A stretch of DNA of 64,000 nt, from positions 1,485,650 through 1,549,649 of the forward strand of contig NZ_LR594487.1 of NCBI RefSeq assembly GCF_901686465.1, in the 5' to 3' direction. The notes under the pieces were generated by a model. That model was given only the letters and a program-made list of their open reading frames with translations. It had not been told where the DNA came from and did not search any database. Shown in pieces: positions 9,135-52,130 of the stretch. The position numbers and the translations under genes were made by a program. Every line of letters begins with the position of its first letter. Within the stretch, counting starts at the first letter, position 1. The DNA comes from Halorubrum sp. DM2. GTDB taxonomy: Archaea > Halobacteriota > Halobacteria > Halobacteriales > Haloferacaceae.

Positions 9135-9535
9135 GGCGGAACGGACAGAGGGAGCCCGACTCCCGTGCCTCCGGCATGAGGAAAGTCCCCCCACCGGCCG
9201 GACGGGCGACCGGGCACACGCCCGGAGTCGGAGACGGCTGGCGCTGGAACAGCAACGACACCCCCCGCCTCGACCGATGAGACGCGTTCGGTCGCCGCAG
9301 GCGACCGGCGGCGTTCGCGGGATCACCCGCGAACGCGCGAACCGACCCGCAAGGGAAGGGAGTTAACCCGTCGAGGACCGACGTGGCCTCGCCACGCGAC
9401 GGGCGGGAACGGATGGAACGGCGAATCCTCGCCGGTGCAAGTCCGTGCCATAAGGTAGTCCGGCCACGGCGCGGACGCTCAGCCGAATGTCGGGACGAAC
9501 CGAAGGGGGCTTACTCCCCTCAGTCCGCTCGTACC
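9135..9535 (+). ncRNA. rnpB: RNase P RNA
   Basis: This is the catalytic RNA that trims tRNA 5' leaders. Diagnostic archaeal elements are present in order: ACAGAGGGAGCCCGACTCCC near the 5' end, the conserved GAGGAAAGTCC (CR-I), an AGTTAACCC/GTGCAAGTCCGTGCC central region, ATAAGGTAGTCCGG, and GGGGGCTTACTCCCCT near the 3' end. The ends can pair: 9139-9146 with 9523-9530 (7 of 8 pairs), giving P1. The length of roughly 400 nt fits type A archaeal RNA. A TATA-like CTTATT lies at about 9112. The exact ends are estimated to within about 10 nt. Confidence 0.92.
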
Positions 9536-9563: not shown

Positions 9564-9571
9564 TTTATAAA
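9564..9571 (+). promoter_or_regulatory. TATA-box-like TTTATAAA in front of repeat copy A
   Basis: This is a near-consensus archaeal TATA box between the end of rnpB and the structured repeat. Initiation would be expected about 25 nt downstream, at the start of the repeat. It makes independent transcription of copy A plausible. The same TTTATAAAC string appears in the tail of copy D. Confidence 0.45.
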
Positions 9572-9578
9572 CCGACAG

Positions 9579-9915
9579 CGGTGGCGCGTGCCTCCGAGCG
9601 GTCGCCCTCGGCGACCGCGAGGAGCACCGCGCGAGGGAGTCGGTGGCGGTCGAGCGAAGCGAAGACCGCCAGCGACGAGGCTGGGGAGGCGCGAGGGGCT
9701 GTGCGGAGCGGTGCGGGGCGGGACTCGAAGGGGCAGCCGGGAGGGGGTCGGAGGCGAAGTAAGGACCGGAAGGAGCGAGCAACGCGAGCGACTGAGGACC
9801 GCAGCGAGCGTCCGACCCCCTCCCGGCTGGGGCTTCGGCGGTCTCGGTTACAAGGTCGGCTTCACAGTAGCGAGCAGCTGAAGCTTCAACGACATCTATG
9901 GCTATCGCCCGACCA
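9579..9915 (+). repeat. Structured dispersed repeat, copy A (with 3' tail)
   Basis: This is one of four related non-coding elements in the window. Stem 1 is 9598-9606 with 9610-9618 (9 bp, loop CTC). Stem 2 is 9644-9651 with 9664-9671. Stem 3 is 9735-9752 with 9811-9828, a perfect 18-bp match enclosing 58 nt. Between stems 2 and 3 lie the conserved boxes GAGGCTGGGGAGGCG and GGGACTCGAAGGGGCAG. A degenerate tail repeat beginning GGCTGGGGCTTCGGCGGTC follows. It sits just after rnpB on the same strand, upstream of the htpX 3' end. ORFs through it are Arg/Pro/Ala-rich artefacts. The boundaries are approximate. Confidence 0.8.
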
Positions 9916-25372: not shown

Positions 25373-26053
25373 TTAGAGCCGGACCGCTTCGCCGCCCTCG
25401 GTGAAGAGGTCGGGCGCGCGGAGGTCGACGCTGGTCGTCGCGCCCGAGGGCGAGACGATGTCGAGCGATGTCTGCTCTCCTTGACTGAACGCGTCGTCCG
25501 TCGCGCCAAACGGATCGGTTTCCGGGTTGAAGACGACGGTGAACCGCTCGTCGTCGTTCAGGACCGCTTCGGACGCGGTTGTGAAGTTCCCGGTGGAATT
25601 CTGGACCGCGAACGTTCCTTCAGGAATGTCACTGACTCCAAGAGAGGGATCGTCCAGCAGCGTACCGTCTGTATCCCCATTTGCCGTAGCGTTATCATTG
25701 TCAGTAAAGATCAGGTTTGCCTGCCCGTTGGGGCCGACAGCCTGTATCGTCGCCGAACTCAGGTCGATCTGAGTGGAGCCGGCCGCACCCGCAACGCCAA
25801 CGCGGATCTCAGAGAGGGTCTGTGGATTGGTGCTGTCGTTAACGATGCCGACAGTGCTCGTCACGTCGATTCGCTCGGAGACGAGGTCCGTACTCTCTTG
25901 ACCGGTCGCTTCCGCCTGAGACTGGAGGAATCCAGCCGTGTTGATGAGGACGCCAGCGGCGATGGCGGCGACAAGCACCATCGCGATGAACACGATGAGC
26001 GTGCCGATACCGACCTGACCGCGGTCGTCGTCGTTGTTGATGAACTCGAACAT
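25373..26053 (-). CDS. arlA: Archaellin (type B copy 2)
   Basis: Major-filament subunit, 226 residues. The short basic-acidic leader ends DDDRG and is cut by the prepilin peptidase before [20 protein letters not shown], the hydrophobic assembly helix. The ectodomain carries [17 protein letters not shown] and ST/NST sites for N-glycosylation. It is closely related to the 229-residue archaellin at 26796, sharing [15 protein letters not shown]. It starts 2 nt after the preceding archaellin, so the two form a coupled pair. The symbol arlA follows general naming, and paralogue numbering is arbitrary. Confidence 0.95.
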
Positions 26054-26055
26054 TG

Positions 26056-26628
26056 TTACAGCCTCACCGAAGTCTGGTCACTCGTCAGTGTTGTCGGGAC
26101 GCGGAGTTCCGCGGTCGTCGTCGCGCCGGACGACGAAGTGAACGTCACGGCCAGCCGCTCGCCCTCGGCGAGCGCGCTGTATCCCTCCACGTCGGCAGTG
26201 GTGACATCCACCGTCACGAGCGCGCGGTCGCTGCTGTCCGTGAGAACGTCGTTTTCTGTGCCGAGGATGTTCTCGACGTCAGTAGTGAGGTTCTGGACCT
26301 GGACGGTTGCCTGTCCCTGTTCTCCGACGAACTCGATCGTCGTCCGGTTGAGATCGATGTATCCCGATCCGGGGGCCTTCGCCACCACGAACTGGAGCTC
26401 GTCGACCGTGTTGTCAGTCACGTTGCCGGACTGGCTCACGATCTGAATTCGGTCAGAGACCTGTGCTGTACTCTCTTCGCCGGTCGCTTCCGCCTGCGTC
26501 TGCAGAAAGCCGGCCGTGTTGATCAGTACGCCCGCCGCGATCGCCGCCACCAGCACCATCGCGATGAACACGATGAGCGTGCCGATGCCCACTTGACCGC
26601 GGTCGTCGTCGGTTGTTGCGTCGAACAT
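26056..26628 (-). CDS. Archaellin (type A copy 2)
   Basis: The 190-residue archaellin starts [11 protein letters not shown] with the processing site before [11 protein letters not shown] chose the ATG at 26626-26628, because upstream in-frame codons are AT-rich and lie beyond the mature start. Its ectodomain ([29 protein letters not shown], and C-terminal [16 protein letters not shown]) matches the archaellin at 27488, so this is the second copy of type A. The AT-rich gap 26629-26795 probably holds a promoter for this pair. Confidence 0.93.
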
Positions 26629-26795
26629 TTGTATATCGAGCGCCCGCGGAGTCCGCTCCCGGGCTCTATACGACGAAATGCGAGATGTATTGATAAGCAA
26701 CCGGTCCAATATATTGGATGTAATAATCAGTAGAAGAGACGTAGATGTCACTCAACATGACTAGATAATAATAAGACAGACGGCGATTCAGAGCG

Positions 26796-27485
26796 TTACA
26801 GCCGGACCGCTTCGCCGTTCTCGTTGAACAGGTCGGGAGCCCGGAGTTCGACGCTGGTCGTCGCGCCCGAGGGTGAGACGATGTCGAGCGACGAGGTGTC
26901 GCCTTCACCGAAGTATTCGCCTTCACCTGCGCCGAGGCCGAACGGCTGGGTCTCGGGGTTGAGAACGACAGTGAATCGCTCTTCGTCGTTCAGAACTGCC
27001 TCGCTCGCGTTGACGAAGCTACCGCTGGAGTTCTGGACTGCGAACGTACCGTTGGGAATCTTAGAGACCTTCGATCCGGAGACGTCACTGAGGGAAGTCC
27101 CGCTGTCACCGGTCTCATTCGTGTCCGTGAAGATCAGGTTCCGCTGCCCGTTCGGGCCGACGGCCTGTATCGTCGCGGAACTCAGATCGATCTGGTTGGA
27201 CCCGGCAGCGCCAGCGACGCCGACGCGAATCTCCTGTAGGTCACCGGTTGTGGAGCCGTCGGTTTCGTTCACGATACCGACAGTACTCGTCACGTCAATA
27301 CGCTCGGACACGAGGTCCGTACTCTCTTGGCCCGTCGCCTCAGCCTGCGACTGTAGGAACCCGGCGGTGTTTATCAGCACACCGGCGGCGATGGCGGCGA
27401 CGAGCACCATCGCGATGAACACGATGAGTGTACCGATACCGACCTGACCGCGGTCGTTGTCGTCGTTAGTGATGAATTCGAACAT
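26796..27485 (-). CDS. Archaellin (type B copy 1)
   Basis: The 229-residue archaellin has leader [13 protein letters not shown] and the same hydrophobic helix [20 protein letters not shown]. The ectodomain contains [40 protein letters not shown] and [20 protein letters not shown], nearly matching the archaellin at 25373. It starts 2 nt after the stop of the archaellin at 27488. Several NxS/T sites are present. Confidence 0.95.
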
Positions 27486-27487
27486 TG

Positions 27488-28078
27488 TTACAGCCTCACC
27501 GAAGTCTGGTCCTGCGTCAGCGTTGTCGGGACGCGGATCTCGGTCGTCGTCGTTGCACCGGACGCCGTCGTGAACGTCACCGACAGCCGGTCACCGGCGG
27601 AGAGGTTCCCGTACGTGACCTGATCGTCGAGGTCGACGCTGATTTCGGCCCGGTCGCTGCTGTCCGTCAGAACGACGGTCCCACTGTCCGGACTCGTGAA
27701 GATATCCACGTTTTCGGAGCCGATTTCGTCGAGCTGGAACGTTTCCTGACCGTTTTCACCGATGAGTTCGACACTCGTCTGGTTGAGGTCGATGCTGCCC
27801 GCACCGGGGGCCTTCGCGACGACGAAGTCAATATCGGTGACGTTGATCTGATCGCCGCTGGAATTTACGATACCCGATTGGCTCACGACCTGAATCCGGT
27901 CGCTCACCTGACTCGTACTCTCTTCGCCCGTTGCTTCCGCCTGCGTCTGGAGGAACCCGGCCGTGTTGATCAGCACGCCGGCGGCGATCGCCGCCACCAG
28001 CACCATCGCGATGAACACGATGAGGGTGCCGATCCCCACTTGACCGCGCTCTTCCTCGTCCAGTATGGTTTCGAACAT
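27488..28078 (-). CDS. Archaellin (type A copy 1), first gene of the archaellin cluster
   Basis: The 196-residue archaellin has leader [12 protein letters not shown], processed before [10 protein letters not shown]. The ectodomain contains [40 protein letters not shown] and a C-terminus [20 protein letters not shown]. It is first in the row of four archaellins and has a TATA-like element about 60 nt upstream. Together with the next gene it forms one of two homologous A-B pairs. Confidence 0.95.
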
Positions 28079-38402: not shown

Positions 38403-38790
38403 TAGCGGTGGCGCGTGCCTGCGAGCGGCCGCCTTCGGCGGCCGCGAGACAGCGCCGCGCGAGGGAGTCGCTGGCGGTCGGAGCGAAGCGAAGACCGCCA
38501 GCGACGAGGCTGGGGAGGCGTGAGGTGCTGTGCGGTGGCGGTCGGGTGGGACTCGAAGGGGCAGTCGCGAGGCGGGCGGAGGCGACGCAAGCACCGCAAG
38601 GAGCGAGTGAAACGAGCGACTGCGGAGCGCAGCGAGCGTCCGCCCGCCTCGCGGCTGGGGCTTCGGCGGTCTCGGTCGCGAGGTTACTCTCGATGAAAGC
38701 AGTCACGTATAGCCGAGCGGCTGGGACTTCGACGGTCTTAGTCACGAAGTCGATCTCGACGAAAACAGTCATGTATAGCTGAGCGGTCGA
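38403..38790 (+). repeat. Structured dispersed repeat, copy B (with tandem tail)
   Basis: Stem 1 is 38425-38433 with 38437-38445 (9 bp, loop TTC). Stem 2 is 38467-38479 with 38493-38505 (13 bp). Stem 3 is 38563-38580 with 38639-38656 (18 bp, one G-U). The conserved boxes GAGGCTGGGGAGGCG and GGGACTCGAAGGGGCAG lie between stems 2 and 3. The tail holds about 2.5 degenerate copies of a roughly 66-nt unit starting GCGGCTGGGRCTTCG. It fills most of the 564-nt gap between metX and the CoA ligase. From 38791 to 38935 I see only a probable promoter region. Confidence 0.8.
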
Positions 38791-38935
38791 GAATTCGACG
38801 GCGTCAGAGTGGACGAAAAACGTTCAGACCGGAACCCGATCGTTGAGAGAAGATCAGTAGAAGTCGCCGCCCCGAGGGACCCTCCCGATCAATCATGACA
38901 ACGTTCATAGTTCCCGACCTCGTGGTGTGTGAGGT

Positions 38936-43875: not shown

Positions 43876-45300
43876 CCCTCCCCGCGCTGAAGCGCGAGGA
43901 TTCCCACGGCACCGCGCCGCTGGGTTGGGATATTGTGGTTTACGACGTTACCTGTTCTTGAGGCGCAAACGCGCCAGTTTCCTTGTCAAACAGGAACGTC
44001 GATGGCTGTGCCAACCAGCCGTTACTCCTATCACCGCCATCCGTGGCGGGACTCGGAGATACTTTCTGTCGAATGTTCTCGGCTCCGTTCACGTCCGCGT
44101 TCGCTACCGTACCACAGTCGTCACACACGTACAACCCGCGTTTGACGCGGTTCGCGTCACGCTTGCGGCCACAGCACGAACACGATTTCGACGTGTCGCG
44201 TTCGGACACCTGCTCAACCGTGATACCTTCCATCTCGGCCTTGTAGGTGAGCAAGTCGGTGAAGCGGTCGAACGCCCACGAGTGTAAGTCGAGATTCTCG
44301 TGAGAACCCCAGTTTTTCGAGTCTTCGGTTTCATCGTCCTCGCGAATGTCGGAGAGATCGCCGATCATGATTGTCCCAACATCTTCCTCAACACACTGCT
44401 GGACAATGTGTTTCGAGAGCGTGTGGAAGTAGTGGGTGCGGCGCTCCGATTTCTTGTGGTTTAACCGCGTGGCTTGTTCGGAGTTCGAGTCGTCACACCG
44501 CGCGATCCGCTTGCTGAAGTAGTAGTCGTCTTCTTTCAGGCAATTGAGCGGATACAGCTCGGCATGGCCGTCCTCGTAGGCGAGTGCGGCGAAGTTGTTG
44601 ATCCCGAGATCAACACCAACCGTCTTCTCACCGGGAGATTTAGCCACTTCAATTTCGACTTTACACACGAAGTGTAACTCCCATTCCTCGCCAGTCCAGA
44701 TGGCCCGCACTTGCTGGACGTTCTCCACGGCGGAGAGGTCAACGTCGGGGCGTGTCTGGTATTTACAGAGGACGAAGTCCGACCAGTAGTCCTTGAGGTT
44801 TGAGCCTTGGGAGAGTCGAACGCGGTTGTACTGGGTGTCGAGTTTGAAGCCGGCGGCTTTGAACGTCACCGTACTCCGTGGGTGTTCGTCGCCGTGTTTA
44901 CGGTAGCCGGGCGGGTTCGCTCGCATGTCGCCGTTGCGTCGTTTGCCGTACCAGCCGTTGAACGCCTCAGCGAGTTCTTGAAGGACTCGCTGACTTGACT
45001 GAGAATGGAGGTCATCGTAGCGTTCGTGCGATTTCAGGTACGCGGTGAGTTCGGTGTGATTTGGAATGTGTCCGATTTCATCCCAGACTCGGCTGCATGT
45101 CCACCGTCCGACGTTCCAGAGTTTCGAGGCTGCGAACCCGAGGGCGTCAAGGTCGTCTGACACCCGAGACTGATTCCGAATGGAAGCAGTATAGGTGCGC
45201 GTGACGACCTGTTTTGCCATACGTAACCTATGACAATATTCCTAGTTAAAGGTGTATATTGATGCGGCATGAAATATCCTGCCGTGCCATCGAACGGTGG
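43876..45300 (-). mobile_element. IS200/IS605-like solo tnpB element (no tnpA)
   Basis: The element carries only tnpB. At its right end the minus strand reads GGAATCCTCGCGCTTCAGCG, with stem 43883-43888 (CGCGCT) paired with 43891-43896, then GGGGAGGGTGTCAA, ending at about the hef stop. At the left end a hairpin CGGCA/TGCCG (45265-45269 with 45280-45284) is typical of subterminal IS200/IS605 palindromes. No transposase gene is present, so movement would need TnpA in trans. The ends are estimates. Confidence 0.7.
43940..45220 (-). CDS. tnpB: TnpB, RNA-guided nuclease-family protein of a solo IS605-type element
   Basis: The 426-residue protein has the TnpB architecture: an N-terminal wedge/HTH region (SKLWNVGRWTCSRVWDEIG), a RuvC core with Asp204 in VGVDLGINNFAAL and Asp376 in ADVNGAENI, and a zinc ribbon with Cys347/350 and Cys366/369 (SKSCSCCG, YVCDDCG). 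The second RuvC motif, where active TnpBs usually have Glu (VEDL-like), reads TIMIGDLSDIRED, with Gly287 at the expected position. An omega RNA would derive from the 3' end region 43880-43990 on the minus strand. Confidence 0.92.
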   Translation of the reverse strand: MAKQVVTRTYTASIRNQSRVSDDLDALGFAASKLWNVGRWTCSRVWDEIGHIPNHTELTAYLKSHERYDDLHSQSSQRVLQELAEAFNGWYGKRRNGDMRANPPGYRKHGDEHPRSTVTFKAAGFKLDTQYNRVRLSQGSNLKDYWSDFVLCKYQTRPDVDLSAVENVQQVRAIWTGEEWELHFVCKVEIEVAKSPGEKTVGVDLGINNFAALAYEDGHAELYPLNCLKEDDYYFSKRIARCDDSNSEQATRLNHKKSERRTHYFHTLSKHIVQQCVEEDVGTIMIGDLSDIREDDETEDSKNWGSHENLDLHSWAFDRFTDLLTYKAEMEGITVEQVSERDTSKSCSCCGRKRDANRVKRGLYVCDDCGTVANADVNGAENIRQKVSPSPATDGGDRSNGWLAQPSTFLFDKETGAFAPQEQVTS

Positions 45301-49736: not shown

Positions 49737-49814
49737 GCGATCACCGACGGGCCGGGCGGTCAAAAAACGGCGGTTTCGCGGGGCGGCGGAGCGACCCGGC
49801 GATTCCCGATTCGG

Positions 49815-50150
49815 CGCGCGCCTCCGAGCGGTCGCCTCCAGCGACCGCGAGGAGCGTCGCGCGAGGGAGTCAGCGGCGACCAACGGGAGCCGCTGACGAG
49901 GCTGGGGAGGCGTGAGGTGCGGGGCGGTGCGGGGTGGGACTCGAAGGGGCAGCCGTGAGGCGGGCAGAGGCGACGTAAGCACTGAACGAGTGAGCGAAGC
50001 GAACGAGTGAGGCGCGCAGCGAGCGTCTGCCCGCCTCACGGCAGGGGCTTCGGCGGTCGTGTGCTCGGAAAGAGTCGCGTCGTAGCGAGCGGCTGGGGCT
50101 TCGGCGGTCGTGTCCGTGGCAACGACTACGTCGTAGTGGGCGGCTAGAAT
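49815..50150 (+). repeat. Structured dispersed repeat, copy C (with tail)
   Basis: Stem 1 is 49828-49835 with 49841-49848 (8 bp). Stem 2 is 49869-49877 with 49889-49897 (9 bp). Stem 3 is 49952-49968 with 50026-50042 (17 bp, perfect). The conserved boxes GAGGCTGGGGAGGCG and GGGACTCGAAGGGGCAG are intact. The tail contains two copies of a roughly 57-nt unit with GGGGCTTCGGCGGTCGTGT, followed by a decayed third. This is the only copy not directly downstream of a same-strand gene. It sits between tfx and the TRAM gene (gap 49737-50222). Confidence 0.8.
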
Positions 50151-51769: not shown

Positions 51770-52130
51770 CTTATAAGTCGCCGATCGACACGAACATTCC
51801 CGAAGTCCCAGTCGCTCGGCTGTACAGGAGTGGATCTGTTTATAAACCGTCGATCGACACGAACACTCCTGAATCCCCAGTCGCGAGGCGGACACACGCT
51901 CGCTGCGCTCCTCGTCGCTCGTTTCACTCGTTCCTGCGGTGCTTACTTCGCCTGTGCCCGCCTCGCGACTGCCCCTTCGAGTCCCACCCGACCGCGACCG
52001 CACAGCAACCGCACCTCACGCCTCCCCAGCCTCGTCGGCGGCTCCCGATGGTCGCCGCCGACTCCCTCGCGCGGCGCTCCACCGCGGTCGTCGGGGGCGA
52101 CCGCTCGGAGGCGCGCGCCGACGGGCTACA
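51770..52130 (-). repeat. Structured dispersed repeat, copy D (with tail)
   Basis: Read on the minus strand, stem 1 is 52098-52104 with 52084-52090 (7 bp). Stem 2 is 52054-52062 with 52034-52042 (9 bp). Stem 3 is 51953-51970 with 51879-51896 (18 bp, one G-U on the minus strand). The two conserved boxes are present. The tail (51770-51878) has two copies of a roughly 65-nt unit, each with TGTTCGTGTCGATCG followed by a TTATAA-like string. It begins about 35 nt after the pccA stop on the same strand and fills most of 51706-52158. Confidence 0.8.

What the first reader, a model, noticed from the sequence alone, without database searches (positions are those of the whole stretch)
9579..9915. A family of four dispersed structured elements with compensatory stem changes (copy A; others at 38403, 49815, 51770)
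Four non-coding elements of about 250 nt share the same order: stem 1, stem 2, box GAGGCTGGGGAGGCG, box GGGACTCGAAGGGGCAG, then a 17-18-bp stem 3 enclosing 56-58 nt. Stem 3 arms differ between copies (for example AGCCGGGAGGGGGTCGGA in A and AGTCGCGAGGCGGGCGGA in B), yet each arm has a matching partner, with only two G-U pairs overall. Stem 1 changes T-A (A) to C-G (B). Stem 2 changes A-T (C) to G-C (D). Linker boxes barely change. Conserved pairing with changing bases is the signature of selection on RNA structure, so these look like an undescribed structured RNA or 3'-end element rather than junk or genes.
Basis: seen in the sequence. Interest (0 to 1): 0.88.

Follow-up and report, generated by a model that had tools for sequence, protein, structure and literature searches.

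The report
Haloarchaea-wide dispersed structured repeat element
The four elements are members of a family of about 137 folded, non-coding repeats in this Halorubrum chromosome; the most conserved hairpin of the family turns up in 149 of 194 sampled salt-loving archaea and in none of about 100 other archaea, its base pairs are preserved while its letters change, and I found no description of it in Rfam or in the papers I could search.

Summary
A-D are four of ~137 copies in this 3.45-Mb chromosome (69 forward, 68 reverse; reversed-pattern control 0). All 34 other Halorubrum species searched have the element; ten counted carry 15-195 copies. A covariance model of the 118-nt stem-3 hairpin hits 149/194 Halobacteria genomes (54/65 genera) and no genome outside the class. 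Across families, 31/39 pairs show two-sided changes and 23 covary more than every non-paired column pair. GU exceeds AC in the apical part, GA/GA mismatches are near-invariant on one strand, and that strand folds better: selection acts on a folded single strand. RNA versus ssDNA is not settled. Copies lie between genes, prefer convergent pairs, mostly keep their place between species, and are nearly absent from Halorubrum plasmids and viruses. Sequences at matching sites are not closer than paralogues and hairpins reassort freely, so copies recombine. No inverted ends, target duplications or linked Y1 transposase were seen. Rfam and the searched open literature hold no match. Best reading: an undescribed, probably RNA-level, structured intergenic element; its function (3'-end or insulator hairpin) is inferred.

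The parts
9564..9572 (+). TATA-like TTTATAAAC just upstream of copy A; a similar motif lies upstream of about a third of copies
   Evidence: sequence; position peak -14 to -16 in 104 copies
9579..9837 (+). copy A, element core
   Evidence: HMM span
9598..9618 (+). copy A stem 1 hairpin GCGGTCGCC/GGCGACCGC
   Evidence: sequence and fold
9629..9641 (+). copy A box GCGCGAGGGAGTC
   Evidence: near-invariant in the copies aligned
9639..9676 (+). copy A stem 2 hairpin; in other copies replaced by other self-complementary hairpin cassettes
9677..9691 (+). copy A box GAGGCTGGGGAGGCG
   Evidence: 137 matches of the box pattern in own genome
9720..9734 (+). copy A box GGGACTCGAAGGGGC; CGAAG (9726-9730) pairs with CTTCG (9833-9837)
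   Evidence: covariation G-C to A-U at the second pair
9735..9828 (+). copy A stem 3: 18-bp arms 9735-9752 and 9811-9828, apical rod 9753-9810 with conserved GA/GA mismatches
9829..9837 (+). copy A closing box GGGGCTTCG
9838..9890 (+). copy A degenerate 3' tail unit
38406..38665 (+). copy B, element core; tail units follow to about 38810
49813..50052 (+). copy C, element core; tail units follow to about 50150
51870..52121 (-). copy D, element core; tail units run down to about 51780

Best explanation
A-D belong to an ancient family of structured, non-coding intergenic elements of Halobacteria. SHOWN: the plus strand of the element is constrained to fold into hairpins joined by near-invariant boxes; the most conserved part is a 118-nt rod (GGGANUGAAAGGGGC, a long stem of variable sequence, an apical stack of 2-bp helices and GA/GA mismatches, then GGGGCUUUC). 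Copies sit between genes, mostly keep their place between species, and exchange sequence with each other. INFERRED: the folded strand is RNA, carried in read-through transcripts and in some copies possibly started from the TATA-like motif just upstream; the rod with its GA mismatches and G-rich internal loop binds a protein; the effect is to mark, protect or separate transcript ends, above all between convergent genes. Copy number in Halorubrum rose by duplication or capture at new sites by an unknown route, and recombination keeps the copies alike.
For: Covariation: 29/39 pairs with two-sided change in mostly Halorubrum modules, 31/39 across families, 91% paired vs 66% shuffled and 32-41% when slid; 23 pairs above every non-structure pair after average-product correction. 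Single-strand signature: GA/GA at fixed apical positions in about 95% of 118-mers and across families; apical GU:AC 71:16 (Halorubrum-type) and 25:5 (cross-family); plus strand -162.7 (z -5.6) vs minus strand -127.8 (z -3.1) kcal/mol. Placement: 104/105 intergenic, 42/113 convergent vs 12/73 divergent gaps (p 0.003), element 5' end a median 44 nt after a stop codon. Persistence: sites A and B occupied in nearly all syntenic Halorubrum blocks; same site between cbiG and a tetrapyrrole methylase gene in three genera with unlike but self-complementary arms and conserved flanks. Host confinement: none in IMG/VR or phages, one partial match in the plasmid collection, none in sampled low-GC stretches. 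Class-wide but not beyond.
Against: No transcription data. No clear preference for the sense strand in tandem gaps (21 sense, 30 antisense; other families 21 vs 15), which a cis-acting mRNA element would be expected to show. The TATA-like motif is in only about a third of copies and its spacing varies. Outer stems show no clear strand bias (GU:AC 25:14). Inverted loops occur (9/223). About a quarter of Halobacteria genomes gave no match, so it is not essential.
Confidence: 0.42

Rival explanations
1. DNA-level chromosomal element, like bacterial BIMEs: one strand folds as ssDNA (or as an extruded hairpin) and is bound by a DNA protein (topoisomerase, SMC-like, recombination or repair factor). 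RNA is irrelevant.
For: Independence of transcription direction; near-symmetric GU/AC in the long arms; loop inversions and module reassortment, which are DNA events; head-to-head hairpin pairs in other families; confinement to the main chromosome in Halorubrum. From general knowledge: GCGAAGC-type mini-hairpins and GA/GA mismatches are also very stable in DNA.
Against: No strand run pattern along the chromosome (runs z 0.68), which a replication-strand role might give. The folding and GU/AC asymmetry fit ssDNA as well as RNA, so they do not decide.
Confidence: 0.28
2. Old non-autonomous mobile element (MITE, PATE or REP type) that spread selfishly and is now mostly fixed and decaying.
For: High copy number varying 15-195 between congeners; presence/absence and opposite orientation at some orthologous sites; empty sites against Halorubrum cibi and G027; near-terminal palindromes without terminal inverted repeats, as in PATEs.
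Against: No TIR or target duplication; genomes with 90-124 copies have no Y1 transposase (G058, G016), and only 1 of 26 Y1 hit loci has a module within the 1.5-kb flanks; near-absence from Halorubrum plasmids, viruses and sampled low-GC stretches, where mobile elements usually gather; most orthologous sites keep the element in the same orientation (14 same, 4 opposite, 4 empty).
Confidence: 0.22
3. No selection on structure: arms stay matched because inverted repeats correct each other by template switching, and gene conversion spreads the result.
For: Inverted loops, modular stem-2 cassettes in linkage equilibrium with stem 3, concerted evolution between copies.
Against: Correction of palindromes would erase the apical GA/GA mismatches, yet these are near-invariant while the 2-bp helices between them covary; GU exceeds AC in the apical part; the covariation recurs in low-copy genomes.
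Confidence: 0.08

Closest known systems
REP / BIME elements of bacteria (with RAYT transposases)
   Same: Dispersed, palindromic, intergenic, many copies, enriched between convergent genes; in other haloarchaeal families the hairpins often form head-to-head pairs 33-300 nt apart.
   Different: Unit is 118-270 nt, not 20-40; stem sequence is variable and the boxes and apical rod are conserved; no associated Y1 transposase.
PATEs and IS200/IS605-type elements of Haloquadratum (PMC3119063)
   Same: Non-coding, no terminal inverted repeats, no target duplication, palindromes near the ends.
   Different: Not linked to Y1 transposase genes here; nearly chromosome-confined in Halorubrum; positions conserved between species and, at two sites, between genera.
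MITEs and SMRs of haloarchaea (PMC3119063)
   Same: Short, non-coding, tens to hundreds of copies.
   Different: MITEs and SMRs have terminal inverted repeats and SMRs high identity between copies; these have neither (81% mean identity, no TIR).
Structured-RNA motifs of Rfam (general kind)
   Same: Conserved boxes on covarying helices, found in distant genomes with a covariance model.
   Different: No Rfam 15 family matches; transcription not shown.

Membership tests
Rfam family (any of 4227) | score at or above a family's gathering threshold | tested here: not met
   window matches only RNase P and sot0042, both outside the element; best weak match over copy A has E 0.21 and is far below threshold
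REP/BIME | dispersed intergenic palindromes, convergent bias, inverted pairing | tested here: met
REP/BIME | short conserved palindrome of about 20-40 nt | tested here: not met
   118-nt rod with variable stem
REP/BIME | associated RAYT/Y1 transposase | tested here: not met
   no Y1_Tnp in G016, G058 or G132 despite many copies; 1 of 26 Y1 hit loci with a nearby module
MITE | terminal inverted repeats and target-site duplication | tested here: not met
   two empty-site comparisons show neither, though flank divergence limits resolution
PATE / IS200-IS605 | near-terminal palindromes without TIR or TSD | tested here: met
PATE / IS200-IS605 | ends related to IS605-type transposons, mobilised by TnpA | tested here: inconclusive
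   no module beside 25 of 26 Y1 hit loci; ends not compared with ISfinder
structured non-coding RNA | significant covariation | tested here: met
   R-scape itself not available
structured non-coding RNA | transcribed | not testable with these tools
   no RNA-seq available
protein-coding repeat | conserved open frame through the core and tails | tested here: not met
   single-nt indels in the core; tail frame is open in some length types but not in the 57-nt type

The most novel reading that the evidence does not exclude
A class-wide haloarchaeal structured RNA, built of a GA-mismatch rod closed by an invariant G-rich internal loop, is present in up to about 200 gene-end copies per genome as a host-encoded system for marking or insulating transcription units, with copies kept functional by constant recombination.
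Probability: 0.3. Interest if true: 0.88.

Novelty: new variant of a known kind. Interest (0 to 1): 0.72.

Why it matters
If right, most sequenced haloarchaea carry an unannotated structured motif, in Halorubrum at about 40 copies per Mb, in a group used as a model for archaeal transcription and genome biology. It gives a defined, testable candidate for how archaea handle convergent transcription or organise intergenic chromosome sites, and a case where structure is conserved while stem sequence turns over even at one fixed locus. It also warns that haloarchaeal ORFs reading through these elements may be spurious.

Tried and rejected
Known RNA: rejected. Protein coding in the core: rejected (single-nt indels). 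Protein coding in the tails: spacing is a multiple of 3 and some length types are open, but the commonest type in other genomes (57 nt) has in-frame stops in 80% of units, and variable sites do not look like third codon positions by eye; left unexplained. Y1/RAYT mobilisation: not supported. Own promoter for every copy: TATA-like motif in about a third only, with variable spacing. Replication-strand orientation: no run pattern. Viral origin: none in IMG/VR or phage records. Four copies only: rejected. Simple vertical descent of sequence: rejected, orthologues rank 9th to 80th among 81 paralogues. The first alignment mis-oriented minus-strand loci and was redone. Literature: ten searches found no description; most subscription papers are not in the library.

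Full report
WHAT IS THERE. Copy D lies on the minus strand at 51870-52121. The core is about 245-262 nt in most copies; 3' of it come 0-3 tail units that repeat the closing motif GGCTGGGGCTTCGG every 48-69 nt.

COPY NUMBER AND SPREAD. The window lies in a single 3.45-Mb contig. A pattern of the second box finds 137 places (69 forward, 68 reverse) against 0 for the reversed pattern. A BLAST with copy A hits all 34 other Halorubrum genomes of the first survey, and ten counted genomes hold 15 to 195 box copies. An exact 25-mer is also in named Halobellus captivus contigs. A covariance model R1 of the stem-3 module matches 149 of 194 Halobacteria genomes, 54 of 65 genera. In a phylum-wide sample of 120 genomes only 15 Halobacteria matched and no genome outside the class did. 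Related DNA is present on large plasmids of many other named haloarchaeal genera.

STRUCTURE. In an alignment of 33 modules, mostly from Halorubrum, 96.7% of cells are paired against 77.4% in shuffles, 29 of 39 pairs have two-sided changes, and the covariation score is 0.536 against 0.167 shuffled and 0.04-0.09 when slid. In 42 modules from other genera and families the figures are 91.0% against 65.9%, 31 of 39, and 0.609 against 0.171; that alignment was fitted to the model, so pair counts lean towards it. After average-product correction, 23 of 39 structure pairs in the cross-family set exceed every non-structure pair, a stand-in for R-scape.

WHICH STRAND, AND WHY NOT MERE PALINDROME CORRECTION. 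GA dinucleotides at the apical mismatch positions are conserved in about 95% of 118-mers and across families. In the apical part GU outnumbers AC 71:16 and, in other families, 25:5 (counts are not independent because copies share ancestry). The long arms show no clear bias (25:14). The plus strand of copy A folds at -162.7 kcal/mol (z -5.6), the minus strand at -127.8 (z -3.1). Template switching between arms could keep arms matched without selection, and loop inversions (9 of 223) show that such events happen. But it would erase the conserved mismatches, so selection on a folded single strand is the better account of the apical rod. Whether that strand is RNA or ssDNA cannot be told here.

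WHERE THE COPIES SIT. With an ad hoc hexamer gene finder, 104 of 105 placed copies are intergenic. Convergent gaps hold one in 42 of 113 cases, divergent in 12 of 73, tandem in 51 of 278 (Fisher p 0.003 and 0.0001; the sample is enriched for gaps with elements, equally for all types). The 5' end lies a median 44 nt after a stop codon, or about 103 nt from a start codon. In tandem gaps sense (21) and antisense (30) placements are similar.

HISTORY. In syntenic blocks of nine Halorubrum species, sites A and B are occupied in nearly all, in the same orientation; C and D vary. In a wider set some species have an element in the opposite orientation beside RNase P. Over mapped loci: 14 same orientation, 4 opposite, 4 empty in the window genome. 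Two empty sites could be read and show no inverted ends and no target duplication, though the flanks have diverged. Elements at matching sites are not each other's closest relatives (ranks 9-80 of 81), and stem-2 and stem-3 types are unlinked, so copies exchange sequence. In low-copy families the module keeps fixed places: between cbiG and a tetrapyrrole methylase gene in three genera, and between a zinc-ribbon protein gene and a tRNA-intron endonuclease gene in two. There the boxes and flanks are conserved while the arms differ, each arm still matching its partner.

MOBILITY. No viral or phage record holds the element. In the plasmid collection only one partial match was found (Halorubrum salinarum pHAR01; in a convergent gap), although at least five Halorubrum plasmids totalling about 1.66 Mb are held; at the chromosomal density of about 40 per Mb some 60 would be expected. 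Five sampled stretches of a low-GC region (0.53-0.60 against 0.685 in the window) have none. Genomes with many copies lack Y1 transposases, and only one of 26 Y1 hit loci has a module within its 1.5-kb flanks. Active selfish spread is therefore not favoured; slow gain and loss plus conversion is.

READING. Shown: an ancient, class-wide, intergenic, structure-constrained element that recombines among copies. Inferred: RNA as the acting molecule, protein binding by the rod, a role at gene ends. The independence from transcription direction is the main point against a cis-acting mRNA role and keeps a DNA-level role alive.

LIMITS. No RNA data; R-scape and ISfinder not available; class-wide copy numbers are lower bounds because candidates per genome were capped; only about 105 of ~137 own copies were read in full; the literature search covers open-licence papers only, so 'undescribed' means not found there or in Rfam 15.

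Noticed in passing
window 9144-9525 (+): Archaeal RNase P RNA (Rfam RF00373); copy A lies just 3' of it, and this arrangement recurs in many Halorubrum species checked.
   Followed up: partly
window 43879-44064 (-) and 43943-45220 (-): sot0042 RNA (Rfam RF02656) overlapping the 3' end of an OrfB_IS605/Cas12f1-like TnpB gene; not related to the element.
   Followed up: no
3' tails of the elements, e.g. 38666-38810 and 50053-50150: Tail units repeat at spacings that are almost always multiples of 3 (118 of 124 in other genomes), with a reverse-strand frame that is open in the 51, 54 and 69-nt types but not in the 57-nt type. No explanation found.
   Followed up: partly
own genome C1 about 1.02-1.37 Mb (L476-L480): A roughly 350-kb stretch with no 0- or 1-mismatch copies of the box; sampled parts have GC 0.53-0.60, so probably a foreign island.
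   Followed up: partly
L409, L413, L398, L405, L390, L411: In other families the hairpin modules often form inverted pairs 33-300 nt apart, like BIMEs.
   Followed up: partly
L449, L451, L454 and L392, L452: Single modules kept at the same place in several genera: between cbiG and a tetrapyrrole methylase gene, and beside a tRNA-intron endonuclease gene.
   Followed up: partly
own genome 472303-472544 and 749376-749592; L119, L152 and others: Copies whose stem-3 rod or loop is inverted relative to the rest of the element.
   Followed up: partly
5' flanks of about ten own-genome copies: Several copies share upstream sequence (GCTCAGTACAGG...GACCGATCTGCGGTG) close to what look like IS ends (GGCTTTGTTGAAATTC).
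   Followed up: no
window 25373-28078 (-): An array of adjacent genes holding four 278-nt repeats that are 65-73% identical to the first, i.e. tandem paralogues.
   Followed up: no
CP002989.1 70821-70924: A hypothetical protein is annotated over a module, probably a spurious ORF through the element.
   Followed up: no
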